IMG/VR virus record: IMGVR_UViG_3300044492_000248
Span: 1-20,256 of that record
DNA from: a virus
Reading direction: 5' to 3' (one strand)
DNA length: 20,256 nt
Below, piece by piece: positions 162 to 13,512 of the stretch (its first letter is position 1; the number at the start of each line of letters is the position of its first letter). The translations under genes and the position numbers were made by a program. A model generated the notes under the pieces. That model was given only the letters and a program-made list of their open reading frames with translations. It made no database searches and was not told where the DNA came from.

Positions 162-1351
162 TGGGGCGCGATACCGATCACCAGCGGATCAAAGCGCCCG
201 TTGGCGTCGACCTTGTTCTTCAGTTCCAAACCACGATGCTTCTTGGCGTCATTGTAAATCGCGTAAGCCGCCACCAGCGGGTGGATCCCGCCCATGAAGT
301 CGACGACGACCAAACCTGGAAGCCGATACGCTAAATCGTTCATCATTTGCGAAAACTGCGTGGCGTACTTGCGCAGTTCCAGGAACAGGGCGTTGTCGCA
401 AACGTTGTAAGCTGCCTGCGCCTCGTCATCGAGGACGGCCAGAACAGCGTCCATCGATGTCAGCGCCTCGTTGACGTAGCCGTAGGTCCGAGACATCGCC
501 GCCTCTGCCATACCGATAGCCGCCAAGACACGATGGCGGCTTAGCACCGCCTCTTCGCTCTCCACAGCCGACCCAGCCGGGAGAATCGAAGAGGTGGTCG
601 CGGCGTTAGCCAGCCGCTTCATGATCCGAAATTCGTTGTCGTAGTCGACCACATGCAGCGGGATGGTGTGGAACCCGTTAGTCAGCGCGCGATCGACATT
701 GCTGGCCGATGCGGCCAGGCCATCGTCGTTAGCGACCTCCTCCATCCGCAGGACGTCGCGATGCTCGGATCCTGGCGCGTCGGGAGGCAGCACCTGTTTG
801 GCAACTGTCGCAACCGTTCCAATCAATCGCTGCGCGGTATCGATGACATCCTTGCGCCAGGGCTGGCTGACATATTGGGGTCGATAATCGCGCCGAAAGC
901 TCGCGCTCGAGGTCGCGTTGAGCGCCGTCGAAATGATCCCGAACAACAGCCCACCGATACCAGATCCAACGGGATTGGCTTCGACGAACTCCATTTCAGC
1001 GGTGGTGTGCCCGGCTTCGCCTTCGACCTTATCGCTGACTTTGCAGGATTTGCACGCCACCATGACGGTGCCGCGGGTCGGATGCACCAGCATCCCGGGG
1101 CCCGGCGACTGGCAGGCTTCGATCAGCGCCTGGCTGTCGCCGACGTGATCGTCTTCCTTAAAGTCCGCCGACAGACTGTAGGTGCGGATCCTGCGGCCGA
1201 GATCGGCGTAGGCAGTATCTTCACCAAATGGAAATTCGCCCTCCGCGCCGCGCCGGCCAACCTCGATAGAAGCTTCGGTGCAATAGAACATCACGCCTTT
1301 GAAACTGGCCTGAACGACATCCTGGCCGACGGCGCATACGGAACGGGACAT
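158..1351 (-). CDS. Mu gpN-like DNA circularization / tail protein
   Basis: A 397-residue protein whose first ~120 residues match the DNA-circularization N-terminal family (PF07157, Mu gpN type). The pattern is FKGV.F, GRRG..GEFPF, YADLGRR.RTYS, DSQALIEAC..PGPG.LVHPT.GT, then a CKSC pair and MEFVEA. Members are tail or baseplate proteins; the name comes from a proposed role in protecting or circularising injected DNA, while structural work places gpN in the baseplate hub. A Gly/Ala-rich hydrophobic stretch near residues 128-150 follows the domain, and the remainder looks mainly helical. The gene starts 1 bp after the upstream TGA and its own stop overlaps the gpP-like start. Position after the tape measure matches Mu. 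Family assignment is strong; the exact role is from the family. Confidence 0.88.
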   Translation of the reverse strand: MSRSVCAVGQDVVQASFKGVMFYCTEASIEVGRRGAEGEFPFGEDTAYADLGRRIRTYSLSADFKEDDHVGDSQALIEACQSPGPGMLVHPTRGTVMVACKSCKVSDKVEGEAGHTTAEMEFVEANPVGSGIGGLLFGIISTALNATSSASFRRDYRPQYVSQPWRKDVIDTAQRLIGTVATVAKQVLPPDAPGSEHRDVLRMEEVANDDGLAASASNVDRALTNGFHTIPLHVVDYDNEFRIMKRLANAATTSSILPAGSAVESEEAVLSRHRVLAAIGMAEAAMSRTYGYVNEALTSMDAVLAVLDDEAQAAYNVCDNALFLELRKYATQFSQMMNDLAYRLPGLVVVDFMGGIHPLVAAYAIYNDAKKHRGLELKNKVDANGRFDPLVIGIAPQ

Positions 1352-1556: not shown

Positions 1557-4388
1557 TTACCCCGTTCCGGTAGCGGCGCCTCTATCGACCGGCTTACCGC
1601 CGCCCGTGACATTCAGCGGAATGCTGGTCGGCAGGTTGCTGGTGTCGATCTTGATCATCGGCAAGTTGGACGTATCGACCTGCATCAGCGGAGGTTCTTC
1701 AACTTGAATTTTGGTGTTCGCAGCCGCAGTATTAAAGGCGGCATCAAAATTAGGGACGACTTCGCTGCGCTCTTCCTGTCCAAGCGTCTTAGGCCGCGCT
1801 CCCGGCATCGGCACGCCTTCTTCGAAACCAGGCTGCCCGGCTTTGACGCCCTTGCCGAGATGGACCTTGTTCAACCCGTGAACAACGCCTTCTTCGACAT
1901 CCTTGGCCACCGTCGTCGGCGTGGATACCGGTGGAGGTACAGGCGGTGCGTTCGGATCAGTCGGTTTTTGCGCAGCCGCTGCTTGCTCATCGAGAGTTTT
2001 CTTCTTCTCCCGCAGTTCATTCATCTCTTTTTCGTAAGCCTGGCGGTAGCCTTCGATCTTTTTCCGCTCGGCTGCCAGCCGATTTAGCTCGTCCTGTAAA
2101 TTACCTCTGGTTCTCTTGTCTTTTGTGACATCCAACGTGCGTTGAGTTGACTCTTCATGCTTCTTAATTGCGGCAAGCGTTGAATCAGATTTAGCTAGCT
2201 GATCCTGTACACCCGCAATTTCTCGGCCTACTTGTTCCTGGGCTCTTTCGGTCGCGCTTCTCTGGTCGGACGCGCCAGTAGAAGCGCCCATCGCGTCGGT
2301 TTGGGGCTCACCACCGCCGCCAGGCATAAGCCAGTCGCCTAGCTTACCCCATATACCTTGCATGAATTCAGCTGCAGCTTGCAGCGTTGTGCTGCCTTCG
2401 ATCAGCAGCCGGCCTCCTACCATTAACGGACTGGTGTTAAGCAACGCAGACAACCCGCGGCGCCCGGTGTCGGTTGCCAACTCAGCGGCGGCCGGGCCAG
2501 TTGGATCGGCTGCAGCCCTGTTCACTTTGTCCAGGTACCCAGCGACATCCAGTTTCTCGAACGCTTTCTGCCCGATCATGTCCTTAAGATCGGTCGCGCG
2601 AACCTTGATACTTTCCCACTGCGCTGCAGCCGACTTTCGCAGCATCGGATCGATCGGCTGCATCTGGCGACGTTTGCCGTATTCGACCGCCTTGGTCTGC
2701 TGGTCGTAGCCAACAATAAGATCGGTGACACCCTGGACCGCTGCCGCAGAGGCGCCGGACATTTTCTTGCCGATCCAGGCCTTGATCTCGACCGGCGTCG
2801 GCATTCCGGCTTCGGCGATCTCTTCGGCGCTGGCGCCCCCTTTGCCAGCTTCCGCCATACGATCCTTGGCTGCCTTGGTCTTCTTGATATCCTCGTTCAT
2901 CTTCGGAACGAAGTTCTCGTTGAACCACTTGGCCGGATTTTCCAGCAATCCTTTCTCGTCGACCGGCGTTCCAGATCCGGCGTCGATCGTTTGTTTCTTG
3001 CCGCTGCGCTTGACGTCTTTCAGCAGCCCCATGCCGTACCACATCTCGTTGAGCTTCTTAACGTCAACGGTGCCGGTAGCAGATTGCATCGCGCGGAAGT
3101 TTTCGTTCGCACCCCGCATGCCGCGTGCGCCCACGTTGAGCAGCATCCGCGTCAGGCCTTCTTCACTCTGCGAATAAATAGCGGTCTTGTTGTTGGCATA
3201 CGCAGTCTTAACCTGCTGCGAGGTGATGCCAGGATCAATGATCTGTGCGACTTGCGCCGCGTTCAATGCGCGTTGAGCGTCCGGACTCAATTCGCCGGTC
3301 TTCTTGTTAATCAAGTCCGGTGAAGCCAGGTTAAGGCCTTGTACGACTTGCCGCAGACCTTCCAGGTTTTCCTCGCGCGATTTATCCGGGTGCAAGGCGT
3401 ACATTCGAGGAATGTAGCCTTCCTCCAATTGCTGCCGCAGCTTGATCGCCGCGCCCATTTGCCGGTCTTCGGCATTGGCCATCGCGGTAAAAGGATTTTT
3501 ATCTCTTCTATCGATCTCAGCTGGAATATCGCCAAGCAACGAATAGGTGAACCGCTCGCTTTCGTCACGGGTCATCAGCTTGGTGCGGGGATCTTTTGCC
3601 CTGGCGTCTTCAGCGGCGGCTAGTTGCTTCTTCTGCGCATCGGTCGCCAGCAGCGAGCCCATCAGATTTGTCTTGTCGCGCTTGATGCCGGCTTCGGCAA
3701 CAGCGTTGAGCGCCTCTGCGGCGGCACGGCCGGCAGCTTCCAGCAACGAGAACGAACTTAAGATGCCGCCGATCGGGCCCGGCAGTCCTTGGCCGAAACC
3801 GCGCGCAAAATCCCCGAGACCAGTTCTACCCCCGCCGCCCCCAGGCGCGCGACGAGCGCCGCTACCGCCGCCGGGCAATGGCGGTGGCTGTTCCGGAGGG
3901 AGCCCGCTTCCGCTGGCCCCGTAGCGGCGGCGGCGCTTGTTCGGATCGTAGCCCGCGTCATAAGCGTCTCGCGCGGCCTCGCGACGAACACGCTTGGCAC
4001 TGTCACGCTTGTACCCAGCGCGTTCAACAGCCTGTTGAGTGGCGCTTAGTTCCTTATGCCGCTTGATATTCGCGGCAACAGCACGGGCTTCTTCGCGTTC
4101 TTGCGTACGCGCCTGCCGAGTAGCTGCAGCAGTTATCTTGGTCTTTTCAGCCGCGGCTCTTTTTTGGTCTCGTTGTACTTTCTCGGCGGCTTTGGCTGCT
4201 TCCTTGACAGCCTTGGTGCCGTCCTTAGCCTCTTTTGCGACACCGCCCTTGTCTTTGCCTGCTTTGTTGAACCCGGCGGCGGTCTTCTTGAGCGCGGCCA
4301 GCGCCTCGTTGATCCTGTTAATAGTCGCCGTTGATTGGTCGACGACCTTGAGTGTTGCAGTTTCAGTGAAACTGGTACCTCGGGCCAT
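1557..4388 (-). CDS. Tail tape measure protein
   Basis: At 943 residues this is the longest protein in the window, placed directly after the tail assembly chaperone, as in most long-tailed phages. It sets tail length and occupies the tail tube lumen before ejection. The first ~145 residues are Lys/Ala/Glu-rich and coiled-coil-like. A Gly/Pro/Arg-rich linker follows (~155-195) and a weak hydrophobic helix pair (~198-232). A long helical middle is followed by a second coiled-coil stretch (~695-800), then a Pro-rich tail with DTSNLP repeated twice close together near the C-terminus. There is no cysteine, unlike its neighbours. The common rule of thumb of about 0.15 nm per residue would give a tail near 140 nm. 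The ATG directly follows a TAA in the -1 frame of the chaperone, and no clear Shine-Dalgarno is seen, which points to translational coupling. Confidence 0.9.
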   Translation of the reverse strand: MARGTSFTETATLKVVDQSTATINRINEALAALKKTAAGFNKAGKDKGGVAKEAKDGTKAVKEAAKAAEKVQRDQKRAAAEKTKITAAATRQARTQEREEARAVAANIKRHKELSATQQAVERAGYKRDSAKRVRREAARDAYDAGYDPNKRRRRYGASGSGLPPEQPPPLPGGGSGARRAPGGGGGRTGLGDFARGFGQGLPGPIGGILSSFSLLEAAGRAAAEALNAVAEAGIKRDKTNLMGSLLATDAQKKQLAAAEDARAKDPRTKLMTRDESERFTYSLLGDIPAEIDRRDKNPFTAMANAEDRQMGAAIKLRQQLEEGYIPRMYALHPDKSREENLEGLRQVVQGLNLASPDLINKKTGELSPDAQRALNAAQVAQIIDPGITSQQVKTAYANNKTAIYSQSEEGLTRMLLNVGARGMRGANENFRAMQSATGTVDVKKLNEMWYGMGLLKDVKRSGKKQTIDAGSGTPVDEKGLLENPAKWFNENFVPKMNEDIKKTKAAKDRMAEAGKGGASAEEIAEAGMPTPVEIKAWIGKKMSGASAAAVQGVTDLIVGYDQQTKAVEYGKRRQMQPIDPMLRKSAAAQWESIKVRATDLKDMIGQKAFEKLDVAGYLDKVNRAAADPTGPAAAELATDTGRRGLSALLNTSPLMVGGRLLIEGSTTLQAAAEFMQGIWGKLGDWLMPGGGGEPQTDAMGASTGASDQRSATERAQEQVGREIAGVQDQLAKSDSTLAAIKKHEESTQRTLDVTKDKRTRGNLQDELNRLAAERKKIEGYRQAYEKEMNELREKKKTLDEQAAAAQKPTDPNAPPVPPPVSTPTTVAKDVEEGVVHGLNKVHLGKGVKAGQPGFEEGVPMPGARPKTLGQEERSEVVPNFDAAFNTAAANTKIQVEEPPLMQVDTSNLPMIKIDTSNLPTSIPLNVTGGGKPVDRGAATGTG

Positions 4389-4568
4389 TTAAGAAGGCTT
4401 GCCGCCGGCAAGAATTGTTCTGGTGCGCATTTCTTGCCTATGAACTTTGTGAAACTTGGTAATTCTAAAGCTCAACAGCGCGATAGGCAGAGGGCGAATG
4501 TCGCCAGCCGAAGCCGAGAAATAGCGATATTCCTCGACTACCTCCGCTACTCGGTTGGCGACCCGAGA
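4389..4568 (-). CDS. -1 frameshift extension of the tail assembly chaperone (inferred)
   Basis: The zero-frame chaperone gene stops at 4547, leaving 158 bp before the tape measure. The -1 frame is open from about 4710 down to a TAA at 4389-4391 that touches the tape measure ATG. This is the gene G/GT layout known from lambda and reported for Mu-like phages, where a small share of ribosomes slip and make a longer chaperone. No perfect X-XXY-YYZ heptamer is present. The best slip point is the TTTT run at 4568-4571 (codons CGT TTT CTC), where the TTT tRNA can re-pair perfectly. Slipping there adds 59 residues and gives a fusion of about 261 aa. The extension includes a helical VANRVAEVVEEY segment. 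The slip site is inferred. Confidence 0.6.
   Translation of the reverse strand, partial: SRVANRVAEVVEEYRYFSASAGDIRPLPIALLSFRITKFHKVHRQEMRTRTILAGGKPS
4398..4412 (-). promoter_or_regulatory. Hairpin just upstream of the tape measure start
   Basis: CTTGCC, a 3-nt GCC loop and GGCAAG form a perfect 6-bp hairpin ending about 10 nt before the tape measure ATG, inside the frameshift extension. It could modulate re-initiation on the tape measure gene. Function is inferred from position only. Confidence 0.35.
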
Positions 4569-5173
4569 AAACGCGGCAGGATATCTCGCGCGATCGCGAT
4601 GCCATCGGTGACAGCGATCTGAGTCACCGCCCACGAAGGCAGTGCTGTCAACGTCGTACCGAGCGGCTTGGCCACTGTTTCGATCAGCTTGGCCGCTTGG
4701 CTCATGGAATCATCTGCGGCCATTACGTCTTCGATATCGCCGTAGGTTTTAGCGTGGAACTCCAATTCCCTGATCGGCTCTTTGTCTTTCCCAACGGGAA
4801 TAGGCGTCCCCAATTCGTAAACGATTGCCTGGTCGATGCCGTTGCCGTCGCGCACAATTTTACCCTGCTTACCTTCATCGTGATCCAGCTGCGCCGCGAT
4901 CTTATGCGTGTCCTGGATCGGCATCTGCAGGATGTCGGTCATCGACACCGGCATAACTGTGCCATTGACGTAATACGAAACCTGCTTGGCCATCCGCACT
5001 CGACGCATTCGTGCGTCGAAAGCTTTCGGCTCCGTCATCCCTCTCGCCTCGGCAATCGTGTCGACGAACGCCTGAAACGTCAGTGGACGTATCACAGCGC
5101 CGTCGATCACGGCATCGCCAAGCTGGAACTTGATCGGAATCTTTTCCAGCTTGACCCCATTGAGTTCGGCCAT
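4547..5173 (-). CDS. Tail assembly chaperone (Mu gp41 / gpG-like)
   Basis: A 208-residue protein between the tail tube and tape measure genes, the standard place for the chaperone that coats the tape measure during tail assembly. It starts with a strand-rich segment (MAELNGVKLEKIPIKFQLGD). Later it carries the pattern PIRELEFHAKTYGDIEDVMA, followed by a helical region with PLGTTLTALPSWAVTQIA. The PIREL.F...TYGDI element resembles the Phage_TAC / Mu gp41 family (E/41/14 type). It is longer than the ~100-120 residues usual for that family, with an extra N-terminal half. There is no cysteine. Its end overlaps the -1 frame that leads to the tape measure. The start at 5173 lies 10 bp after the tube stop. 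The role is well supported by synteny; the family call is moderate. Confidence 0.75.
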   Translation of the reverse strand: MAELNGVKLEKIPIKFQLGDAVIDGAVIRPLTFQAFVDTIAEARGMTEPKAFDARMRRVRMAKQVSYYVNGTVMPVSMTDILQMPIQDTHKIAAQLDHDEGKQGKIVRDGNGIDQAIVYELGTPIPVGKDKEPIRELEFHAKTYGDIEDVMAADDSMSQAAKLIETVAKPLGTTLTALPSWAVTQIAVTDGIAIARDILPRFLGSPTE

Positions 5174-5183
5174 ATTGGCCCCC

Positions 5184-5630
5184 TTACGCTGCTACGGCGA
5201 ACGTCGGCTGGATTTGGGTAGTGACCCCCTCCAACGTGCCGTTCGGCAGCATCTCGTCGATTTCCTTGAACGACATCGTCATCTCGGCTTCGTGTGTGTT
5301 CGATGGCGTGTCGCCAGTGCCGGTGCCTTTAACGGCGCTATAAACTAGGCCGTTAAAATATTCGACCTGAATCGAGACGTCACTACAGCCCTGGTACATC
5401 GCCAGCGGGATCCGAAGATCCCGGATGACGTTGATCACCAACTGCATGTTAGTCGGCGCCCGCGTCACATAGCCCTGCGGCAGCTCCGAGTTGTTGAACG
5501 CGCACAGCCGCCACGTCGGAAGTTCTTCCGTGGCAAGCTTGTGTGCGATCGGGCCATAGACTGCTTCGGTATCGCAGTCCTTGAAGGTTATGAGGATGTT
5601 CTTAACGCCGACCTGATTCTCGCATGTCAT
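5184..5630 (-). CDS. Tail tube protein (Mu gpM-like)
   Basis: A 148-residue, strand-rich protein directly after the sheath gene, the place and size of the Mu-type tail tube protein. Such proteins stack as hexameric rings inside the sheath and form the DNA channel. The sequence has the expected run of beta segments, including VKNILITFKDC, TNMQLVINVIRD and VSIQVEYFNGLVYS, and an AEMTMSF.EID strand near the end. There are four cysteines (near residues 3, 19, 43 and 82), many for a tube protein of this size. A strong Shine-Dalgarno AAAGGAG sits just upstream of the ATG. The 29-bp gap to the sheath suggests independent, high-level translation. The call rests on synteny and fold pattern rather than a diagnostic motif. 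Confidence 0.8.
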   Translation of the reverse strand: MTCENQVGVKNILITFKDCDTEAVYGPIAHKLATEELPTWRLCAFNNSELPQGYVTRAPTNMQLVINVIRDLRIPLAMYQGCSDVSIQVEYFNGLVYSAVKGTGTGDTPSNTHEAEMTMSFKEIDEMLPNGTLEGVTTQIQPTFAVAA

Positions 5631-5659
5631 AAGACGGTCTCCTTTCTATAAGTCGGCGA

Positions 5660-5673
5660 TCAGCAATTGCTGA
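5660..5673. repeat. 14-bp perfect palindrome over the sheath stop codon
   Basis: TCAGCAATTGCTGA covers the last codons and the TGA of the sheath gene. As RNA it would form a 5-bp stem with a 4-nt loop between the sheath and tube cistrons. It may be a minor transcript-stability element or simply a consequence of the codons used. Confidence 0.35.
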
Positions 5674-7213
5674 GCATCGCAGGCTGCGCGTTGATGATGA
5701 TGTTGGAGATGCGCACCGGCGGGCGGTACGTGAAGTTGATCCACAGCTTGCCGGGGATGCCCTGGCACTTCGGCGCGACATCGAAATCGGTCAGGAGCTG
5801 AATGTCCTTGTCGATGTTGTCGAACTCGCTGAAGAGAATGCCAACCTGCGACTTCGCCCAGGCACGGAACTGGCCCAGGATCATCTTCGGGTTGGTGCCG
5901 CGGATGCCCGCCGGAATGGTGGTGTTCTTGGTGAACAGCCCCAATCCAATCACCTGATTGAGCGCAACGGCTGCCTGATCGGCAGTCGCGGCAGCCAGCC
6001 GGCGTGACGACACGTTCCACCAGGTCGCGTTCAGACGACCATTTTCGTCGTAACGGTTGTTGGTGATGTCGTTGTCGATCACCGGTGCCGTCAGCGAACC
6101 CGTGCCACCATTGAGTGGCGTGGTGGTGACGAAGCCGCTCTTGCGCAGGATCTCCATCTCTTCGAACGTGAAGCAAGAGAAGCAGCTCTCCGGGATGCGC
6201 AGGCAGGACAGAACACCGAAGTTCGGGCCTTGGACGTTCATCTCGGGATTGTCGATGGTCGAGCAGCAGGACAATGCGGCGTAAGCCGCTACCTTCATCC
6301 AGCCGAGTGACGGGTCATCGCAACAATGCGCGAGGCGAGAGACCTCGGCCGAGTTGGTGTCCTGCGCCAGGATCTCACCGAAGGTGCCGGAATTGTACGT
6401 GTAGCCATGCCCGAAACACTGTGGTTTTGAACAGTCCCAGGCGCTCGCGATATAGGCGATCATCTGGTCCTGCCACAGCGGCTCGTCATAAAGCATCCCG
6501 ATACAGCAATAGCAGCACTCGCCGAGAATGGCGGAATGGTTGAGCACTGGCGTGGCACCGTTCACACCAACCACGGTTTGCGCGATCGTGATCTCGAACG
6601 GCGTGCCAGAACCGTTATTCTCCGGCAGATATTCGCGACGCTGATGCCAGTTCGGAATGATCTTCAGGCAATTGCCGACGGTGCCGGCGTTCTTCGCCGT
6701 CAAGGTGACGACGTTGCCATCGCCCGCTCCGGCGGTACCTACGGTGACCTCGTAAGGCAGACCGATCTCGTTCTGCAGCGCCATGGCGACTGCGGCCGCG
6801 ACATCATCGTCCTTCATACCGGTCGTGATGCGGGTCGAGGTATTCCAGCGACCATCGCCAATGAACAGGTCGATGCGCCCGTCATCGGTGATATTCTCTT
6901 CGAAGGTGATGGTATACACCGCCTTGACGGTGGCGCCGACGTCGGCGTCCTTCCAGGGCAGCGCATAGAACTCCATGGCGTGGTTCGGGCAGCACCCGAA
7001 CGCGGTCTTGAGACCCTCAGAAATCACACTACCCTCGCCAAAGAGCAGATCAATGCCCTTGAGCGCGGGGATCTGGATCAGACCACCGGATTGCGCAGTG
7101 CCACTGTCGAGCATCTGGCCCTCAATCAGGATCCGACACTTCGACTTGTAGGCATTCAGGCTGGAGTCGAAGCAAATGCGAATTGCACCGCTTCGGAGAC
7201 TGTCGATAGCCAT
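5660..7213 (-). CDS. Contractile tail sheath protein (Mu gpL / FI family)
   Basis: A 517-residue protein just upstream of the tube gene, the expected order for a contractile tail. The N-terminal part has the sheath-style start (...NAYKSKCRILIEGQML...). The middle shows a domain like other sheaths, with ATVKAVYTITF and GNVVTLTAKNAGTVGN.LKI. The C-terminal third carries AVALNQVIGLGLF, MILGQFRAWAKSQ and a final WINFTYRPPVRISNIIINAQPAM, typical of the conserved sheath C-terminal domain that hands strands to neighbouring subunits. It has about 20 cysteines, including FGCCP, a CCYCC cluster, HCCDD, SCCST and ESCFSC, and ends in SNC. That is very unusual for a sheath. AAAGGAG lies 8-9 nt before the ATG. 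The sheath call is firm; the cysteine clusters have no known explanation. Confidence 0.88.
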   Translation of the reverse strand: MAIDSLRSGAIRICFDSSLNAYKSKCRILIEGQMLDSGTAQSGGLIQIPALKGIDLLFGEGSVISEGLKTAFGCCPNHAMEFYALPWKDADVGATVKAVYTITFEENITDDGRIDLFIGDGRWNTSTRITTGMKDDDVAAAVAMALQNEIGLPYEVTVGTAGAGDGNVVTLTAKNAGTVGNCLKIIPNWHQRREYLPENNGSGTPFEITIAQTVVGVNGATPVLNHSAILGECCYCCIGMLYDEPLWQDQMIAYIASAWDCSKPQCFGHGYTYNSGTFGEILAQDTNSAEVSRLAHCCDDPSLGWMKVAAYAALSCCSTIDNPEMNVQGPNFGVLSCLRIPESCFSCFTFEEMEILRKSGFVTTTPLNGGTGSLTAPVIDNDITNNRYDENGRLNATWWNVSSRRLAAATADQAAVALNQVIGLGLFTKNTTIPAGIRGTNPKMILGQFRAWAKSQVGILFSEFDNIDKDIQLLTDFDVAPKCQGIPGKLWINFTYRPPVRISNIIINAQPAMLSNC

Positions 7214-7241
7214 GGAAAAGCTCCTTTCGTGAGCGGTGGAA

Positions 7242-7520
7242 TTAAACTTGCGGCTTCGGTGCGCCGGTGCCCGGCGCGGGCTGCCCGGAGGGCTGATGCC
7301 CTGTCTGAGCGGTGGTTACGGGGGAGACCGGCTTCGGTTTCGGCGCCGGCGCGGCAGCCTTGGCGTCAGAGCCGCCTTGCTGTTCGAGATCCTTCCAGAT
7401 GTCGACCCCGCGGCGGATGTAGGGAATGTCAGACACCCCAATGAACTTGTCCGACGGAATCATCTTGCCTTCGTAGGGATAGGCAACGCCTGGCTTCGCC
7501 TTCACATAAATCATCGCCAT
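7242..7520 (-). CDS. DUF2635-like small tail protein (Mu gp38 position)
   Basis: A 92-residue protein right before the sheath gene. The first ~45 residues (MAMIYVKAKPGVAYPYEGKM, then SDIPYIRRGVDIWKDLE) resemble the DUF2635 family: a short start with VKP or AKPG, then a .YWRRR..DGDV-like element, here YIRRGVDIW. In Mu-like phages this small gene sits directly upstream of the sheath gene. The second half is a low-complexity Ala/Pro/Lys tail. The reading frame stays open upstream to 7685, but ATG at 7520 has AAGGAG 8 nt before it. The longer start would overlap the preceding gene and would add an Arg-rich shadow sequence, so 7520 was chosen. Function in Mu-like phages is not established. Confidence 0.68.
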   Translation of the reverse strand: MAMIYVKAKPGVAYPYEGKMIPSDKFIGVSDIPYIRRGVDIWKDLEQQGGSDAKAAAPAPKPKPVSPVTTAQTGHQPSGQPAPGTGAPKPQV

Positions 7521-7555
7521 GGTAGTTCTCCTTGTCGATTTCGGGGATTGCATTC

Positions 7556-8155
7556 TCACGGACACGGACGGCATAGCTCGTCTTCTATCTGCTCGCAGGG
7601 GTCGGGAACGCACGCTTCTGGCTCGCAAAGACGAAAGCCGATATCGACCAGCATGTCGGCGTAGCGTTGTTCGTTGTAACACCACTGAAAAGTAGCCAGG
7701 AACGTGAAGGTCAATCTGGCTGCGAGCGGATCCGCTTCGACATGCATGCCGCGATAGGCAACGCGCTCGCCGTTCGGACCGACCCAGTCGATGAAGCCTG
7801 CGATCAGGCGATCGCGGATGATCTCATAAGGGTAGTAATTCCAGTACGGCGTCTCGGCGCCCTTGGACTTGATCCGCGTCGGCTTCATCCAGAAATCGAC
7901 CACGAACGTGTCGGTGATGGTGAACTCCGAACTGGAGTTGCGGGTCAGCTGCTCGCCGACGCTGCGAATGAATGCCACCAGTACCAGCGGCAACGTTGGG
8001 ACGAATTCCCGATTCATATCGATGTCACTGACAGCCACGCAGCGCGCGGTGCCGTCGTCAGGGTCATTTTTCAGGTAGGCGTAAAACCATTCGCTGATGG
8101 CAGCCGCCACCGCGGGAAGAAATCGTTCTTCCCTGGGCGGCGTGCGCGCATCCAT
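7556..8155 (-). CDS. Putative tail terminator / tail completion protein
   Basis: A 199-residue protein between the neck genes and the DUF2635/sheath pair, where Mu-type genomes carry the tail terminator-type gene (gpK or gp37 position). It has an alpha/beta layout: an N-terminal helix (FLPAVAAAISEWFYAYL), strands around FTITDTFVVDFWM, a helix (YEIIRDRLIAGFIDWVG) and a late strand (RLTFTFLATFQWCY). That is compatible with tail terminator folds, but no diagnostic motif is seen. Seven cysteines are present, five of them in the last 23 residues (CEPEACVPDPCEQ and CRPCP), a small Cys/Pro tail that looks like a disulfide knot or metal site. It begins 3 bp after the stop of the preceding gene. The role is inferred from gene order. 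Confidence 0.6.
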   Translation of the reverse strand: MDARTPPREERFLPAVAAAISEWFYAYLKNDPDDGTARCVAVSDIDMNREFVPTLPLVLVAFIRSVGEQLTRNSSSEFTITDTFVVDFWMKPTRIKSKGAETPYWNYYPYEIIRDRLIAGFIDWVGPNGERVAYRGMHVEADPLAARLTFTFLATFQWCYNEQRYADMLVDIGFRLCEPEACVPDPCEQIEDELCRPCP

Positions 8156-8158
8156 CTG

Positions 8159-8557
8159 CTATCCCCGGCTCCACATAACCCAACGGCCAAGCCGGCTGGA
8201 CGCGAGGCCCATTTTCAACGCGTCGTCGCTCATCTTGCGTCGACCTTTCATGCGCCTGGTTCCTTCGCGTAGATAAACCGAATAGGGCATGCCGGTGCCG
8301 ATCGTCATTTCGTCATTAGAAACTTCAGTCTTGATCGAACCGAGCAAATTGCCGGTACGGCGCATTGGCCACTCGCCGGCTTTCGATCCCGGCGTGAAAT
8401 CCCAGGGGTTGTTGACGTCGCCCGGCCACGGCCGGCTCGCGCCCGATCGAAAAGCCTGTTCAGACGCTTTAGCTACGCTTTCCAGCCAACTATGAATCGT
8501 CGCGGCGTCCTTTTTCGCGTGGAACGGACCCCATGGCGTGAATTCTACTCTGATCAT
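8159..8557 (-). CDS. HK97 gp10-like neck / tail completion protein
   Basis: A 132-residue protein with the typical pattern of the HK97 gp10-like family. RRTGNLLGSI (67-75) is followed by a short strand, then GTGMPYSVYLREGTRRMKGR (87-106) and a terminal helix. In relatives this reads RTG.L..SI, then G....YA..vE.GT..m..RP. These small proteins act at the head-tail junction or tail end in HK97-, lambda- and Mu-type phages. The N-terminal helix (AATIHSWLESVAKASEQAF) fits. It contains no cysteine. Its ATG lies 3 bp after the stop of the head-closure gene, and its own stop is 3 bp before the next ATG. The family call is good; whether it sits in the neck or the tail terminator ring is not decided by the sequence. 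Confidence 0.75.
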   Translation of the reverse strand: MIRVEFTPWGPFHAKKDAATIHSWLESVAKASEQAFRSGASRPWPGDVNNPWDFTPGSKAGEWPMRRTGNLLGSIKTEVSNDEMTIGTGMPYSVYLREGTRRMKGRRKMSDDALKMGLASSRLGRWVMWSRG

Positions 8558-8559
8558 GC

Positions 8560-8979
8560 TCAGATCTCGCCTTGATCAGCAGACAAAATATTAACCGGCG
8601 GCGTGACGTGTTCAGAACGCTCAACCAGATGACAGTGCAACGTGATCCAGTGATCGCGATCATAGAATCCAAGCACCTTATACCAGCGCGGCAACGACTT
8701 GCGACGCTCCTCGAACAACCAGGCGGCGCTGGTGAAATCGACGCCGACCGCGGCCTTGATCGTAATCAGGTGCGTAACGCGTTCGGCCAATTCCTTCACC
8801 GCGTAGCCATAGGGTGAGATGAAACTTGGCAGATGCGGTTGTGCGTAGATGATGGCCCAGCAAGTCGCGATCGGTTTGCGTATCAGCTGCATCACGCTGT
8901 CTTTGTCGACGACGTCTTTCATCGTGCAGAGCGATATCCGATGGTTGAAATCGGATATATGTGGATCGATATCGGGCAT
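8560..8979 (-). CDS. Head closure / head-tail adaptor-like protein
   Basis: A 139-residue protein following the gp6-like connector, in the usual stopper position. The pattern fits the SPP1 gp16 / head-tail joining type: an early strand (FNHRISLCTM), then .VMQLIRKPIATCWAIIYAQP, a strand with THLITIKA, and late LPRWYKVLGFYDRDHWITLHCHLVE. In relatives this last part reads 'R.Y.V.gv...d....l.l.c.E'. These proteins close the portal exit after packaging and dock the tail. The ATG overlaps the connector's TAA in a TAATG junction at 8979-8981, so translation is coupled. Three cysteines are present. The assignment rests on the spacing of strands and on gene order. Confidence 0.65.
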   Translation of the reverse strand: MPDIDPHISDFNHRISLCTMKDVVDKDSVMQLIRKPIATCWAIIYAQPHLPSFISPYGYAVKELAERVTHLITIKAAVGVDFTSAAWLFEERRKSLPRWYKVLGFYDRDHWITLHCHLVERSEHVTPPVNILSADQGEI

Positions 8980-9686
8980 TAGATCGCACTCGTATCGTAA
9001 GATCTCCAGGTCTCGAGTGCGCCCGACACCATGGCGATGTTGTTCGAACCTGACACGCCGCCAATCTTGGTCGAATTGTCTTTCCTGTTGCGCTGGGTGA
9101 GCAACTCGTCGCCGGGATGCTCAACGATCCAAGCCAAAAACTGAAGACAACCGAGCACAACACCTGCAGGGACATCCGCTGGTGATTTGAAGCCGGCGTT
9201 GTAGGCGGCTTGCATGCCGCCATTGACGGCGTGGCTTGAACAGGGGTCGCAGCAGTTCGACAGGTCGATCAGCCCGGTCACGATCGGCACCTTGATGGTA
9301 CGCGTGCCTGGGGGCACCATGAAGGTGCGGTTGTGCGTCGGATAGGGACTGCCGTAGAGGTTCACGAAGCCGTCGGCGACCGGATACTGCAGTTGGAACA
9401 TGTAGGTCATCTTGCCCGGCTTCGGGTAGCGCGGACCCTGAATCGGCTCGATGATGGTGCGCTGACCGGACAACAACATGCCGGTGTACATCTCAGCCGC
9501 TTCCAGTGAGGCCATTCGATAGAGGTGCAGCTGCTCGTCGGTGACCCCAGGCACGTCATCGGTCTTGGTGTGTTGACGGATGACATCAAGCGACAGCCGG
9601 GCCGACCAGTCGAACGTACCGATCGGGCTGTTCATTCCGTTCGGCGGACCGCCGTGAGGCTCGGGCGCGTCCGAGAACCTCAGCAT
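8979..9686 (-). CDS. gp6-like head-tail connector protein
   Basis: A 235-residue protein with the layout of the phage gp6-like connector (adaptor) family. It has an N-terminal helix LSLDVIRQHTKTDD, a second helix QLHLYRMASLEAAEMYTGMLL followed by 'SGQRT', a central strand domain with TRTIKVPIVTGLIDLS, and a late AYNAGFKSPADVPAGVVLGCLQFLAWIVEHPGDEL helix. The late helix matches the family pattern 'Y.AG......vP..l..a.l.lv...ye.R'. These proteins form a 12-fold ring under the portal. A cysteine cluster NCCDPC sits in the central domain. The frame is open up to 9782, but that start would lie inside the preceding gene. ATG at 9686 overlaps the previous stop by 7 bp and begins with a sensible MLRFSDAPEP. 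A C-terminal WRSYDTSAI ends the protein. Confidence 0.72.
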   Translation of the reverse strand: MLRFSDAPEPHGGPPNGMNSPIGTFDWSARLSLDVIRQHTKTDDVPGVTDEQLHLYRMASLEAAEMYTGMLLSGQRTIIEPIQGPRYPKPGKMTYMFQLQYPVADGFVNLYGSPYPTHNRTFMVPPGTRTIKVPIVTGLIDLSNCCDPCSSHAVNGGMQAAYNAGFKSPADVPAGVVLGCLQFLAWIVEHPGDELLTQRNRKDNSTKIGGVSGSNNIAMVSGALETWRSYDTSAI

Positions 9687-10387
9687 TTCGCGATCCCGAT
9701 GTCGTAGCAAGACTTGTCGGAGAAGCAGATGCAGTTGCAGTCCAGCGCGCTCTGGATCACGGTCAAACGCCAGATCTCGCACTGCTGGGCTGCCGGTGAC
9801 ACCGTCACCGGGAAGTAGACGCTGAAATACTGCTGGTTGACCACCGCGGGCCCGATCGAAATGTGCGGCTGCGGGATCATGGGGCCAGGATCGATGCCGA
9901 CTGCGATCATCACCTCGAAAATGAATGGCGCGTTCTTGCCGTCGGAGGCTGAGGCATAGAATCGCTCTTCGCCGAACCAGTTCGAGCTCGGCGTGTACGT
10001 GAACATGCCTTTGGGATCGAGGATGATCTTGCCGTGCTTGGGCGCGTAGAGGGGGAGGATCTTGAAGGTGAGGACGTCACCATCGGGGTCGCTGACGCGC
10101 GTCTTGAGATCTTCGGTCAGCGGAGCGTTCATATCGGTCTGGAATTTGGCCATCCCATCGACGGAGGTAATCGCTGGCGGCAGGTTGTTGCCGGCGATCG
10201 GGATGACGCAGGTGTCCAGCAACTCGATCTGGAACTGGGGCGCGCAGTGCAGGAAGCCGACCGGCATGGCCCAGGAATGGATCAGCGAGACCTTGGTGGT
10301 GGTGCCCGGCACCAGCGCCATCTTCTCGCAGCAGCAGACCTGACAGCCATTGTCTGATTTCGAGCCGTCGACGACAAAATGGTACAT
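9680..10387 (-). CDS. Cys-rich virion protein with an Ig/cadherin-like domain
   Basis: A 235-residue protein. Residues ~72-165 form a bacterial Ig/cadherin-like domain, recognisable by DPDGDVLTFKI, then P.HGKIIL...G.FTYTPSSNWFGEERFYASASDG, the standard pattern of Big_9/VCBS-type repeats. Flanking segments are strand-rich. Twelve cysteines are present: a CQVCCC cluster at 15-20, singles at 48, 60 and 203, then DCNCIC at 216-221, C227 and C235 at the very end. The gene lies between the capsid-associated genes and the gp6-like connector. A head decoration or fibre-like surface protein is the most natural reading, since Ig-like domains are common on phage exteriors, but adhesion to the host has not been shown. 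GGAGG sits 9 nt before the ATG, and the gene begins 3 bp after a 30-aa micro-ORF. Confidence 0.7.
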   Translation of the reverse strand: MYHFVVDGSKSDNGCQVCCCEKMALVPGTTTKVSLIHSWAMPVGFLHCAPQFQIELLDTCVIPIAGNNLPPAITSVDGMAKFQTDMNAPLTEDLKTRVSDPDGDVLTFKILPLYAPKHGKIILDPKGMFTYTPSSNWFGEERFYASASDGKNAPFIFEVMIAVGIDPGPMIPQPHISIGPAVVNQQYFSVYFPVTVSPAAQQCEIWRLTVIQSALDCNCICFSDKSCYDIGIAKC

Positions 10388-10390
10388 GTG

Positions 10391-10483
10391 TCAGCCTCCA
10401 CTGCATTGCGGCAGAAAACCGGTATAAAACACCGGAAACATGCCCCAATGACTGATCGAATACATATAAACGCCTTCGGTCAT
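10391..10483 (-). CDS. Micro-ORF, 30 aa
   Basis: A 30-residue ORF (starts MTEGVYMYSISHWGMF, ends QCSGG) whose ATG overlaps the preceding TGA as ATGA at 10480-10483 and whose TGA lies 3 bp before the ATG of the Ig-domain gene. It is aromatic-rich and holds one Cys. The exact overlap at one end and tight spacing at the other suggest it is translated, either as a real peptide or as a coupling leader. I do not recognise it. Confidence 0.5.
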   Translation of the reverse strand: MTEGVYMYSISHWGMFPVFYTGFLPQCSGG

Positions 10484-10773
10484 GACAGCCGTCCCATCTG
10501 GCCGTAATTCGCCTGGCCCGAGCAGCTCGCCCACTCGTTGGAGTGGCACCCAGGCAGCCTGGCGCGGCCGGCTGCAGGCATCGGCGGCGGCGGGGGCTGA
10601 CGGATAGCCTTGGCCAATTGCATCATCACGGGCGCTGCCGCGGGGCGCATGGGAGCGCGCAGCATGGGGCCCGCCTTGGTGGCGCCGGAGCCCCCGGTGG
10701 TGGAAACCCTAAGCGCGGATGTCGTGCTCGCGAAAGACTGCGACCGGGCGGGCTGACAGGAGCGGAACGCCAT
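10480..10773 (-). CDS. Low-complexity hypothetical protein, 97 aa
   Basis: A 97-residue protein rich in Ala, Pro, Ser and Arg, with a short poly-Pro run (RQPPPPPMP, ~64-72) and three cysteines. The frame stays open up to 10899, but that would run through the 12-bp inverted repeat. ATG at 10773 is preceded by GTGAGG and was chosen. The stop overlaps the next ATG (ATGA). Composition resembles small phage proteins made of disordered linker, and no domain is visible. The neighbours are virion proteins, so a minor head component or scaffold-like linker is possible. Confidence that it is a gene is moderate and rests mainly on the overlap with the next ORF. Confidence 0.5.
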   Translation of the reverse strand: MAFRSCQPARSQSFASTTSALRVSTTGGSGATKAGPMLRAPMRPAAAPVMMQLAKAIRQPPPPPMPAAGRARLPGCHSNEWASCSGQANYGQMGRLS

Positions 10774-10793
10774 TGAAACCTCACTAAGTAAAG

Positions 10794-10842
10794 CCCCTGG
10801 GGAAAAGTCTGGGAGGTTGAGGACGTCAAGTTTCCCCAGGGG
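10794..10842 (-). promoter_or_regulatory. 12-bp perfect inverted repeat in an intercistronic gap
   Basis: CCCCTGGGGAAA (10794-10805) and TTTCCCCAGGGG (10831-10842) can form a 12-bp stem with a 25-nt loop. It lies in the only sizeable gap (94 bp) of this part of the operon, and each arm is itself nearly palindromic. No U-tract follows on the minus strand, so a processing or attenuation site is more likely than a classical terminator. Confidence 0.65.
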
Positions 10843-10867
10843 TCTGCCGATCAAGCCTGAACTAGTG

Positions 10868-10951
10868 CTACGGACACTGGAAGCAGGGCGGGACGGCAAG
10901 CGCGATCGGCGGGTTAGCGCCGCAACGCGAAACGCAGATAACCTTGATCAT
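10868..10951 (-). CDS. Cys-rich micro-ORF, 27 aa
   Basis: A 27-residue ORF whose ATG overlaps the TGA of the 106-aa gene as ATGA at 10948-10951. It has four cysteines at residues 6, 10, 23 and 26: CVSRC at one end and CFQC at the other, separated by a short Gly/Pro/Ala segment. The arrangement looks like a miniature metal-binding or disulfide-bonded peptide. The overlap, plus a Cys pattern too regular for random reading, supports expression. No family is recognised. It may be a cofactor for the Cys-rich particle or simply a coupling peptide. Confidence 0.55.
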   Translation of the reverse strand: MIKVICVSRCGANPPIALAVPPCFQCP

Positions 10952-11268
10952 TTCGAATCACCTTTCTTCGGTTGTGGGGCCGGCGGGGACGCCACCGGCT
11001 CGTTTCCAAGCCGGTTGTAGGCTTGAACTTCAGGCTCGGTCATCAACCGCGCCCAGTTTCTCTTGATCAGATAGTCCGCAGTTTGGGACGGAAGCACGGT
11101 ACTCATGCTGTCCTTTTCCCACTCCACCCGCTGCGTGTCGCCGAAATCATACATGACGTAGTCGAACCAGCGCGAATCCACGGTCTCGCCGCTCTTGTGC
11201 AGCATCACCACACCGACCTCGCCTTTGGTGGTCAGAGGACGCTTATCGATGATAATCAGCTGATCCAT
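10948..11268 (-). CDS. Hypothetical protein in head region, 106 aa
   Basis: A 106-residue protein that begins with strands (MDQLIIIDKRPLTTKGEVGV), has a central acidic/aromatic part (SRWFDYVMYDFGDTQRVEW) and ends in a Pro/Lys-rich tail (PPAPQPKKGDSK). No cysteine, signal peptide or membrane segment is seen. Its start overlaps the end of the preceding gene by 13 bp, and GGCGGGA lies just upstream of the ATG. It is one of the small genes between the capsid and connector genes, where decoration, head-vertex or minor head proteins usually lie. I do not recognise the family and make no functional claim. Confidence 0.65.
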   Translation of the reverse strand: MDQLIIIDKRPLTTKGEVGVVMLHKSGETVDSRWFDYVMYDFGDTQRVEWEKDSMSTVLPSQTADYLIKRNWARLMTEPEVQAYNRLGNEPVASPPAPQPKKGDSK

Positions 11269-11657
11269 GGCAAGATCCCGCCTAATCTTCGGGAAATTCG
11301 GGTAATCCAGGGAAGATCAGGGCAAATCTTGCGTTTTAAGGTAACTTTCGCCTTGGGATCATCAGGCCGATCGACCTCCTGCATCACCCGCACATAGCCA
11401 TCAATGTCGGCCGTGAACGAAATCTGCTTCTCGCGCGCGCTATCGGTCAACCGCATCGACATCGGCGACAGCAATATCGGCGTCGGCAATTCGGCCAATT
11501 CGGTGACGTTGGGCACGTAAGGCGAAAACGCCGGCGCGTCGCCGTTCTTGGCGAAGACGTAGAGCCGTCCCAACCGGGACGGCTCCTCTATTTTACCCAA
11601 GACGAACACTTCGTCGCCTGGGCTCACTCGGATCGCTCGGGAAGCCGAAACTCTCAC
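11256..11657 (-). CDS. Hypothetical beta-rich protein, 133 aa
   Basis: A 133-residue protein with a run of predicted strands: AIRVSPGDEVFVLGKI, LGRLYVFAKN, PILLSPMSMRL, KQISFTADIDGYVRVMQEV and KAKVTLKRKI. It ends in a short basic/aromatic tail and holds one cysteine. The start overlaps the TGA of the 131-aa gene (ATGA, 11654-11657), so the two are translationally coupled. Its place two genes after the capsid gene suggests a small head protein, but no motif names it. Similar size and strand content occur in many phage neck and decoration proteins, so several roles remain open. Confidence 0.65.
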   Translation of the reverse strand: MRVSASRAIRVSPGDEVFVLGKIEEPSRLGRLYVFAKNGDAPAFSPYVPNVTELAELPTPILLSPMSMRLTDSAREKQISFTADIDGYVRVMQEVDRPDDPKAKVTLKRKICPDLPWITRISRRLGGILPWIS

Positions 11658-12049
11658 TTCGGTCCTGACAGCGTGGCGACGACATAAGCGTTGGCAGTGT
11701 CGCCGGACACTCCGATGATCTGAACATAGGCATCGGGACGGCAGGGGATGGTGGCTTTACACACATTCCCTTTGATGGTGCCGGCAGGCAGCGTGATCCT
11801 GGATTCCGCGACCGAAGTCGGTTCATCGCAGCGCGGCACGGTCGGCACCGGGTAGAACGGTCCGGCGATGCAGGGATCCGCCACGTCAGGCGGGGCCGCC
11901 TGCACTTCGAACACGGTATCCGTGCCGATGTCGTTCACAACCTCGAACGTGAAGCTGAAATTGACGTGGTGACGGATGTCGATCGGACGGGCCGCTGAGC
12001 CGGTCCAAGCCAGCACGCCCTCGTGCTGAGTAGCAGTATTGAGGTTCAT
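11654..12049 (-). CDS. Putative capsid-associated / decoration protein, 131 aa
   Basis: A 131-residue protein directly after the major capsid gene, where head decoration genes are common. It is strand-rich with an all-beta look: RHHVNFSFTFEVVNDIGTDTVFEVQAAP, then TLPAGTIKGN and AYVQIIGVSGDTANAYVVATLSG. Four cysteines at 60, 74, 97 and 103 bracket a Pro-rich loop (PFYPVPTVPRC), with spacing that could give two disulfides. A strong AGGAGA lies 7 nt before the ATG. The decoration role is inferred from position and from the beta-sandwich-like pattern. No match to a named family is claimed. Confidence 0.6.
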   Translation of the reverse strand: MNLNTATQHEGVLAWTGSAARPIDIRHHVNFSFTFEVVNDIGTDTVFEVQAAPPDVADPCIAGPFYPVPTVPRCDEPTSVAESRITLPAGTIKGNVCKATIPCRPDAYVQIIGVSGDTANAYVVATLSGPK

Positions 12050-12077
12050 GATAGTCTCCTAGGGATGAAAATGTGGA

Positions 12078-12105
12078 GAACGAATCAGGGCTTCCTGATT
12101 TGTTC
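12078..12105 (-). promoter_or_regulatory. Hairpin directly after the major capsid gene
   Basis: GAACAAATCAGG and CCTGATTCGTTC on the minus strand pair over 12 positions with one mismatch, around a 4-nt AAGC loop. The stem begins immediately after the capsid stop codon. No long U-run follows, so it probably stabilises the capsid mRNA or only partly terminates, which would make capsid more abundant than the genes that follow. Confidence 0.65.
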
Positions 12106-13512
12106 CTACGGTCCGACGCGCAAAACGGTAACGGCGGGGCAGCAGCCGACAAAGCCGCCGTCCTCTGCTCCGAACACGTACTGGACGCACCAGGCGGTCG
12201 AGCCACCCTCCCACTGCTCCATCCAGAGACCACGCTTGTTGACAGCGTAGTAAGCGGTCTTCCAGTTGCCGACCGCGAGGATGAACTCACCGGTGATGAA
12301 CGGCTTGGTGTCGCCATCAAGGGTCAGGTTGTGGGTCGGATCCGGCAGGCAGTTCGAGATGCGGATCCCGCTGACCGTGTAGGACAGCTGGCCGTCGCCG
12401 AACAGGAAGCGACCGGTGTTGTCGACCTGCGCCATCAGGTGCGCCAGCATGTTCTGGTGCATGATGGTCGTGGTCGGGCCGTACTCCATCGGCGTAGATG
12501 CAATAACCAGCCGGACTTCGCGGTGGTCGACCTTGGTGCCGCCGGTCACGCGCTGCGTGAAGCAGTTCGAGGTCGACCAGCCTTCCGGCTCGTTGACGCC
12601 GTCGCCGATCATCAGCGCGCGGTTGCGGTTGATGCGGTAGGAACGCTGCACGGCCTGGTTCATAAAGGCGAGCAGGTCGTAATTAGCCTCGGCGAGGGTC
12701 TTGCGGTGAAGGCAGAACACGCCGCGGTAGTCGAAGGTCTGGCCGTTCTTGAAGATGATGTTGCCTTCGGGGCCGTACTCGGCGTCGCACTTGGCATCGC
12801 AATCATACTTGCCGATCAGGCCGTAATCGATGACCTGCGGGTACATGAACTGCGACTTCGACACCGATACCGATGCGTAGAGATCAAGAAGTTCGGCACA
12901 CTCGACGATACAGTTAAGTTCGATGCCGAGCATTTCCGGCGAGAACATCGCTGAATCCAGCGATGAGGCTTCGAACGCCTTGCGCTCGAACTCGTCGAAG
13001 GAAGCAACGACCTTGCGCTTGGCCTCGAGACCAACCCGCTTGACCAGCTTGCGTACCGCCGAGCGGTAGTGCTGCGGATTGACGAGGTTCTCCATGTCAG
13101 GCTTGAACTCGTCGGGGTCGCCGCCTTTGTAGACGTAGGCGCGCTTCTGCAACTCGATTGCCGCCTTGGTGTCGCTTTCAACCAGATCGCTGCCGCCTTT
13201 GAGGAACGGCGAGTCGATTTCCTTGCGGACCTGATCGAGACCCTGCTCGTATGCCTGCAGGCGGGTCTTCATCTCAGCGTAATCGGCAACGTGCTTGAGC
13301 ACGTCGGCGCGGATCGAGTCGGTATCGCCCTTAACACCGGTGAAGTGGGTGTTGAGGTCGGTGTACTGCTGATCGAGATCCTTGCGGTGCTTCTCGATCG
13401 CGGTGTTGATGCTCACCAACTCGGCGTGCAGTGGCGCCAGCATGGCGTCGGCCTGTGCCTTATCGGCGGGCGCCTCTTTCGTAATGAAAGAGCCCTTCTG
13501 GTAGATGGTCAT
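12106..13512 (-). CDS. Major capsid protein, HK97 fold
   Basis: A 468-residue protein right after the prohead protease. Residues ~1-125 form a charged coiled-coil delta domain (HAELVSINTAIEKHRKDLDQ, MKTRLQAYEQGLDQV) of the sort that acts as an internal scaffold and is cut off by the protease. The rest matches the HK97 capsid family: SSLDSAMFSPEML, YRINRNRALMIGDGVNEPEG (the 'G.G...P.G' signature, ~300-311), a P-domain helix MLAHLMAQVDNTGRFLF, and a closing GEFILAVGNWKTAYYAVNKRG. Ten cysteines lie in the mature part: 201, 205, 238, 242, 267, 317, 388, 442 and a CC pair at 457-458. C238 and C242 form a CDAKC pair. AAGGA precedes the ATG. No Lys/Asn crosslink site can be judged by eye. Confidence 0.92.
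   Translation of the reverse strand: MTIYQKGSFITKEAPADKAQADAMLAPLHAELVSINTAIEKHRKDLDQQYTDLNTHFTGVKGDTDSIRADVLKHVADYAEMKTRLQAYEQGLDQVRKEIDSPFLKGGSDLVESDTKAAIELQKRAYVYKGGDPDEFKPDMENLVNPQHYRSAVRKLVKRVGLEAKRKVVASFDEFERKAFEASSLDSAMFSPEMLGIELNCIVECAELLDLYASVSVSKSQFMYPQVIDYGLIGKYDCDAKCDAEYGPEGNIIFKNGQTFDYRGVFCLHRKTLAEANYDLLAFMNQAVQRSYRINRNRALMIGDGVNEPEGWSTSNCFTQRVTGGTKVDHREVRLVIASTPMEYGPTTTIMHQNMLAHLMAQVDNTGRFLFGDGQLSYTVSGIRISNCLPDPTHNLTLDGDTKPFITGEFILAVGNWKTAYYAVNKRGLWMEQWEGGSTAWCVQYVFGAEDGGFVGCCPAVTVLRVGP

What the first reader, a model, noticed from the sequence alone, without database searches (positions are those of the whole stretch)
5184..13512. Cysteine-rich virion shell with a cysteine-free tape measure and chaperone
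The sheath has about 20 cysteines, many paired (CCYCC, HCC, SCC). The capsid protein has 10, the Ig-domain protein 12, the tail terminator candidate 7 (five in its last 23 residues), and the tube and the 131-aa protein 4 each. The tape measure (943 aa) and the tail chaperone (208 aa) have none. Tailed-phage structural proteins assemble in the reducing cytoplasm and are usually Cys-poor. A bias across unrelated folds that spares the threaded and chaperone parts suggests selection for disulfide locking after release, or for metal/Fe-S binding on the particle surface.
Basis: partly seen in the sequence, partly recalled or inferred. Interest (0 to 1): 0.78.

Follow-up and report, generated by a model that had tools for sequence, protein, structure and literature searches.

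The report
Disulfide-stapled contractile phage, Milano kind
The cysteine-rich shell is real, and it is the same disulfide-crosslinked virus particle already solved in Agrobacterium phages Milano and 7-7-1, but this relative lacks the one sheath bond that Milano breaks when its tail contracts and carries a different set of cysteines instead.

Summary
The counts are right: sheath 20 Cys, collar ("Ig") 12, capsid 10, terminator 7, tube 4, 131-aa protein 4, tape measure and chaperone 0. Sheath, collar and capsid far exceed the window's other genes; related ordinary phage sheaths have 1. The cause is known. The window is a fragment of a Milano-like myophage (sheath 46%, capsid 49% identical), and cryo-EM papers of 2023-2025 describe Milano and 7-7-1 as disulfide-crosslinked particles. 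Every bonding Cys published for tube, capsid, decoration protein and collar is present here and nearly invariant in 42-49 homologues. I also found the unannotated 27-aa linking peptide (10868-10951) with the same four Cys as Milano LP2.

What differs: Milano's sheath bond Cys47-Cys182, which breaks on contraction, is missing here and in 47 of 50 sheaths. Those 47 carry six other Cys, and Cys182 and Cys298 occur only together (13 both, 37 neither). Metal or Fe-S binding is not supported.

In passing: the family includes an apparent 75-kb tRNA-Lys prophage in Bradyrhizobium. Four Bradyrhizobium elements, three apparently capsid-only, carry capsids with the same Cys frame; 25 ordinary prophage capsids do not. 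The disulfides themselves were not measured in this phage.

The parts
5660..7213 (-). Tail sheath (Milano gp20 homologue), 517 aa, 20 Cys. Keeps the partners of Milano 14-244 (here 14-261), 216-327 (233-344) and 467-501 (483-517); lacks 47 and 182; has extra C74, C236, C237, C297, C316, C347 and the pair C182+C298
5184..5630 (-). Tail tube (gp21 homologue), 148 aa; Cys 3, 19, 43, 82 at exactly the Milano bonding positions
   Evidence: Milano bonds 3-19 and 43-82 in PMC10811340
7556..8155 (-). Tail terminator (gp18 homologue), 199 aa, 7 Cys; C-terminal Cys tail (177-199) that is mostly absent from Milano
8979..9635 (-). Neck 1 (gp14 homologue), 4 Cys (128, 129, 132, 163 in the numbering); Milano C117 kept, C120 and C136 absent
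   Evidence: start codon inferred
8560..8979 (-). Neck 2 / head completion protein (gp15 position), 3 Cys
9680..10387 (-).
10868..10951 (-).
   Evidence: found in 45 of 55 contigs upstream of the collar gene
11654..12049 (-). Minor capsid/decoration protein (gp10 homologue), 131 aa, 4 Cys, invariant in 49 homologues
12106..13512 (-). Major capsid protein (gp9 homologue), 468 aa, 10 Cys, all at Milano positions
158..1351 (-). Baseplate centrepiece (DNA_circ_N, gp25 homologue), 6 Cys; Milano bonding Cys5 and Cys318 kept (here 6 and 318)
   Evidence: Milano bonds
1557..4388 (-). Tape measure, 943 aa, no Cys; 0 in all 10 homologues of at least 75% of its length
4547..5173 (-). Tail assembly chaperone, 208 aa, no Cys

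Best explanation
The window is part of a Milano-like contractile phage whose shell is stapled by disulfides. Shown here: homology of the shell proteins, near-complete conservation of the bonding cysteines that Milano structures define, confinement of the enrichment to the exposed shell, and a 27-aa linking peptide. Inferred: subunits assemble reduced in the host cytoplasm, and bonds form once the particle meets an oxidising environment after lysis. Tube rings are sewn by 3-19 and 43-82, sheath subunits by 14-261 and 233-344, the collar to sheath and neck, and the decoration protein and LP2-like peptide to the capsid. Reduction at the host surface would then be needed before contraction. The bond that Milano opens on contraction (47-182) cannot form here, so in this lineage the gate must lie elsewhere: in the co-occurring pair Cys182-Cys298, in the six extra conserved sheath Cys, or in the baseplate network.
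For: Sheath, capsid, tube, collar, terminator and decoration protein each hit Milano and 7-7-1 chains in the PDB, and the sheath model's best PDB match is the Milano sheath 8fop. Published bonds by cryo-EM and mass spectrometry. All 4 tube, 10 capsid, 4 decoration and 7 collar Cys of Milano are present in the window and in almost every homologue; sheath 14, 26, 75, 216, 217, 244, 249, 300, 320, 327, 467, 501 (Milano numbering) are invariant in 41/41. Sheath 47 and 182 occur in only 3/50, together; the six replacement Cys in 47/50, together; C182 and C298 together in 13, singly in 0, neither in 37, with 3 changes each on the tree. Collar C48/C221 co-occur 44 to 1. LP2-like peptide in 45 of 55 contigs. 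Ordinary sheaths and capsids are Cys-poor. No glutaredoxin or thioredoxin in 20 phage records.
Against: No disulfide has been measured in this phage. The tree offers only 2 well-supported independent pairs for C182/C298 (sign test p 0.5), so the pairing could be lineage-linked. Sheath model confidence is moderate (pLDDT 72) and no Cys-Cys distances were obtained. LP1 and neck 1 C120 and C136 are not found in the window. The baseplate wedges lie outside the fragment.
Confidence: 0.93

Rival explanations
1. The cysteines bind metal ions or Fe-S clusters on the particle surface.
Against: The invariant Cys align one to one with disulfides solved in Milano and 7-7-1. Several variable Cys come and go as co-occurring pairs.
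Confidence: 0.03
2. The cysteines are a compositional or drift effect without function, for example codon bias of this phage.
For: The family's whole proteome is somewhat Cys-rich (1.4-1.45% in Milano and 7-7-1).
Against: Enrichment is confined to exposed shell proteins; gp17, tape measure, chaperone and gp19 are almost Cys-free in the same genomes, and Cys columns are invariant in proteins only about 45-75% identical.
Confidence: 0.01
3. The particle is stapled, but C182/C298 and the six extra sheath Cys form intra-subunit bonds that only stabilise the fold, so contraction in this clade is not gated by the sheath at all and only the baseplate must be reduced. (A variant of the best explanation, not exclusive of it.)
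For: Most of the family (34 of 50) has neither 47-182 nor 182-298 and presumably still contracts. Milano's baseplate has its own network that must be dismantled (PMC10811340).
Against: Joint gain and loss of a Cys pair linking the outer sheath domain to the body domain parallels the inter-subunit 47-182 bond; no structure decides it.
Confidence: 0.45

Closest known systems
Agrobacterium phage Milano (MK637516; Schmittlotzvirus; PDB 8fop, 8foy, 8fqc, 8fwm, 8fxr, 8fwg)
   Same: Gene order from terminase to baseplate centrepiece; sheath 46%, capsid 49% identical; all bonding Cys of tube, capsid, decoration protein and collar; LP2 linking peptide; Cys-free tape measure
   Different: Window lacks sheath C47, C73, C182, C303, neck 1 C120 and C136, and LP1; has 8 other sheath Cys, 5 more collar Cys and a Cys-rich terminator tail
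Agrobacterium phages 7-7-1 and OLIVR4
   Same: As Milano; sheath 44% identical; 7-7-1 capsid disulfides also solved
   Different: Share Milano's 47-182 sheath lock, which the window lacks
Synechococcus phages Yong-L2-223 and Ssp-JY38
   Same: Sheath and capsid 56% identical; Yong-L2-223 carries the window's six extra sheath Cys and lacks 47-182
   Different: Cyanobacterial hosts; no C182-C298 pair in Yong-L2-223; the records do not mention a disulfide shell
Ordinary contractile phages (Citrobacter phage phiNP, Paraburkholderia phage IPK; Mu in the fold search)
   Same: Homologous sheath fold and, in phiNP, similar gene order
   Different: 1 Cys in the sheath (phiNP, IPK); phiNP tube has none

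Membership tests
Milano-type disulfide-crosslinked myophages | Tube with Cys 3, 19, 43, 82 | tested here: met
   Window identical positions; 42/42 homologues
Milano-type disulfide-crosslinked myophages | Capsid with the ten Cys of gp9 and decoration protein with four of gp10 | tested here: met
   All aligned in the window
Milano-type disulfide-crosslinked myophages | Multi-Cys collar protein gp13 linking sheath to neck | tested here: met
   C15, 18, 19, 20, 217, 227, 235 match Milano C19, 22, 23, 24, 211, 221, 229; the linkage itself was not seen
Milano-type disulfide-crosslinked myophages | LP2 linking peptide with Cys 6, 10, 23, 26 | tested here: met
   10868-10951, same four positions
Milano-type disulfide-crosslinked myophages | Sheath inter-subunit bonds 14-244 and 216-327 | tested here: met
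   Partner Cys conserved as 14/261 and 233/344, 41/41; bonds not observed
Milano-type disulfide-crosslinked myophages | Sheath bond 47-182 that opens on contraction | tested here: not met
   Q47 and R192 in the window; both Cys only in Milano, 7-7-1, OLIVR4. This feature marks the Agrobacterium branch, not the wider clade
Milano-type disulfide-crosslinked myophages | LP1 Ig-bearing linking protein (gp16) | tested here: not met
   No match in the window among the hits shown and no room between neck 2 and gp17
Milano-type disulfide-crosslinked myophages | Disulfides present in the virion; DTT needed for contraction | not testable with these tools
   Needs purified particles
Milano-type disulfide-crosslinked myophages | Cys-linked baseplate wedges BW1-BW3 | not testable with these tools
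   Outside the 20-kb fragment; Yong-L2-223 BW2 and BW3 have 21 and 25 Cys
Genus Schmittlotzvirus (Milano, 7-7-1, OLIVR4) | Close relatedness within the genus | tested here: not met
   Sheath 44-46% identical and on the other side of a 100/100 branch; formal genus rules were not applied
Metal or Fe-S proteins | Known metal-binding domain | tested here: not met
   No such Pfam family in the Cys-rich proteins scanned (sheath, tube, terminator, collar, neck proteins); capsid and 131-aa protein were scanned only with PHROGs

The most novel reading that the evidence does not exclude
The redox lock on contraction is an exchangeable part: the Agrobacterium branch uses sheath 47-182, a branch including this phage uses 182-298, and others use neither. 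In addition, small Bradyrhizobium elements carry capsids with the matching cysteine frame so that their shells can be stapled onto a disulfide-locked helper's neck and decoration proteins.
Probability: 0.25. Interest if true: 0.65.

Novelty: new variant of a known kind. Interest (0 to 1): 0.45.

Why it matters
It extends a structure known from Agrobacterium phages to a large clade of environmental phages, at least one apparently temperate, and shows by comparison which staples are kept (tube, capsid, collar, linking peptide) and which are replaced (the contraction-linked sheath bond). That makes the open question of how a disulfide-locked tail is triggered testable by comparing branches, and B. 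lablabi CCBAU 23086 with its apparent prophage offers a laboratory entry.

Tried and rejected
Metal or Fe-S binding: rejected, see rivals. Phage-encoded redox enzymes: glutaredoxin (PF00462) and thioredoxin (PF00085) searched in 20 records, none; DsbA, Erv1 and VKOR were not searched. The 97-aa ORF 10480-10773 as a linking protein: rejected, only one other locus carries it; the likely one is the 27-aa peptide. Covariation between different proteins: the strongest cross-protein pairs rest on 4-5 contigs and are not used. A first Cys count of Bradyrhizobium capsids read some loci on the wrong strand and was redone. Literature: no other disulfide-locked contractile phage found in the held library with the terms tried.
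Full report
WHAT IS THERE. The window is a 20,256-base virus record whose structural genes read on the minus strand: terminase, portal, protease, capsid, decoration protein, collar, necks, terminator, sheath, tube, chaperone, tape measure, baseplate centrepiece. Against eight other genes of the window (0.62% Cys) the sheath has 20 where 3.2 are expected (P 2e-10) and the collar 12 where 1.4 are expected (P 5e-8); capsid and terminator are also clear, tube and decoration protein only nominal on their own.

WHAT IT IS. Sheath and capsid match six phage records over nearly their whole length: Synechococcus phages Ssp-JY38 and Yong-L2-223 (56%) and Agrobacterium phages Milano, 7-7-1 (two records) and OLIVR4 (44-49%). 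Sheath, capsid, tube, collar, terminator and 131-aa protein each hit solved chains of Milano and 7-7-1, and the sheath model's best PDB match is the Milano sheath. Published work describes these particles as crosslinked by disulfides: Milano tail (PMC10811340), Milano neck and capsid (PMC10491603), 7-7-1 (PMC12796354). In Milano, tail contraction in guanidine needed DTT, and the sheath bond Cys47-Cys182 is broken in the contracted state while 14-244 and 216-327 persist.

RESIDUE BY RESIDUE. With relatives from IMG/VR I extracted orthologues. All four tube Cys are invariant in 42 sequences. All ten Milano capsid Cys are in the window and in 48-49 of 49, or 47 of 47 where the column is covered. 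All four decoration-protein Cys are invariant in 49. All seven Milano collar Cys are invariant where covered. Twelve sheath Cys shared with Milano are invariant in 41. The Milano LP2 linking peptide, which joins decoration protein to capsid, has a counterpart at 10868-10951 with Cys at the same four positions (6, 10, 23, 26), seen in 45 of 55 contigs. The other linking protein, LP1, was not found.

WHAT DIFFERS. Sheath Cys47 and Cys182 of Milano occur only in Milano, 7-7-1 and OLIVR4. The other 47 of 50 sheaths, window included, carry C74, C236, C237, C297, C316 and C347. C182 and C298 (window numbering) occur together in 13, singly in none, and are absent together in 37; the B. lablabi prophage has both. 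On the tree each changes three times, for example both are absent from L002, the window's sister; but only two well-supported independent pairs exist, so this is suggestive rather than proven. Further variable sheath Cys also share patterns in even-sized sets. In the collar C48 and C221 co-occur 44 to 1. Most of the terminator's Cys-rich tail is absent from Milano. Paired gain and loss is what disulfides predict; a metal site does not specifically predict pairs.

CONTROLS. Ordinary contractile relatives: phiNP sheath 1 Cys, tube 0, capsid 2; IPK sheath 1. phiNP's tape measure also has no Cys, so the Cys-free tape measure in the finding is not diagnostic. Capsids about 26% identical to the element capsids described below: 0-1 Cys in eight phage or IMG/VR records and 0-4 Cys in 25 Bradyrhizobium prophage capsids, none at the ten columns.

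MECHANISM. Shown: conservation of bonding residues and restriction to the shell. Inferred: bonds form after lysis, since no phage glutaredoxin or thioredoxin was found in 20 records and structural proteins assemble in a reducing cytoplasm. Because 47-182 is absent here, the sheath gate of Milano cannot operate in this phage; either another bond replaces it or gating rests on the baseplate network.

HOST AND LIFE STYLE. A B. lablabi contig of 303 kb carries the syntenic virion block. A tRNA-Lys whose 3' 48 bases are repeated exactly 74.9 kb away (34395-34442 and 109293-109340), with a tyrosine integrase beside it, indicates an integrated prophage. A second genome of the same genus group has part of the block on a 10.6-kb contig. 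The window's own host is therefore plausibly a Bradyrhizobium relative, which is not shown.

CAPSID ELEMENTS. Four other Bradyrhizobium loci carry capsids only about 22-28% identical to the window's but with Cys at six of the ten columns in every alignment made and at a seventh in two of three. L137 has an integrase next to tRNA-Ser, an imperfect 25/30 repeat of the tRNA end about 13.3 kb away, a primase-polymerase and a single capsid gene; no portal, terminase or tail gene was found among the ORFs scanned there, nor in the fewer scanned in L134 and L135, whereas L136 has both portal and terminase. A satellite adapted to a disulfide-locked helper is one reading; it is untested.

VERDICT. Observation confirmed, disulfide reading supported and already published for relatives, metal reading not supported. 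New here: the breadth of the clade, the absence of the contraction-linked bond with other Cys in its place, the linking peptide in this window, and the prophage and capsid-element leads.

Noticed in passing
L129-L132 and L114 (Bradyrhizobium lablabi NZ_LLYB01000081.1, about 34.4-109.3 kb): Apparent 75-kb Milano-like prophage in tRNA-Lys with a 48-bp perfect repeat at both ends and an integrase.
   Followed up: partly
L137:5827-19204, also L134, L135, L136: Bradyrhizobium elements with an HK97-type capsid gene that shares six or seven of the ten Milano-type capsid Cys, three of them apparently without portal, terminase or tail genes; possible satellites of a disulfide-locked helper.
   Followed up: partly
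window 10868-10951, minus: Unannotated 27-aa, 4-Cys peptide conserved in 45 of 55 contigs upstream of the collar gene.
   Followed up: yes
window 10775-10867, minus: 12-bp G+C-rich inverted repeat between the linking peptide and the collar gene; phage 7-7-1 has an annotated terminator in the same interval. Folding is not better than shuffles (z -0.75).
   Followed up: partly
window 17756-18136, plus: 126-aa plus-strand ORF with CPHCKRRGCLKC, resembling a zinc-ribbon, followed by a hydrophobic stretch; no Pfam match.
   Followed up: partly
L013 21656-24340: Synechococcus phage Yong-L2-223 baseplate wedge proteins BW2 and BW3 have 21 and 25 Cys, BW3 about 8% Cys.
   Followed up: no
G128:C1:54730-55556: A further match to the Cys-capsid element family, interrupted by a stop codon and split over two frames.
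   Followed up: no
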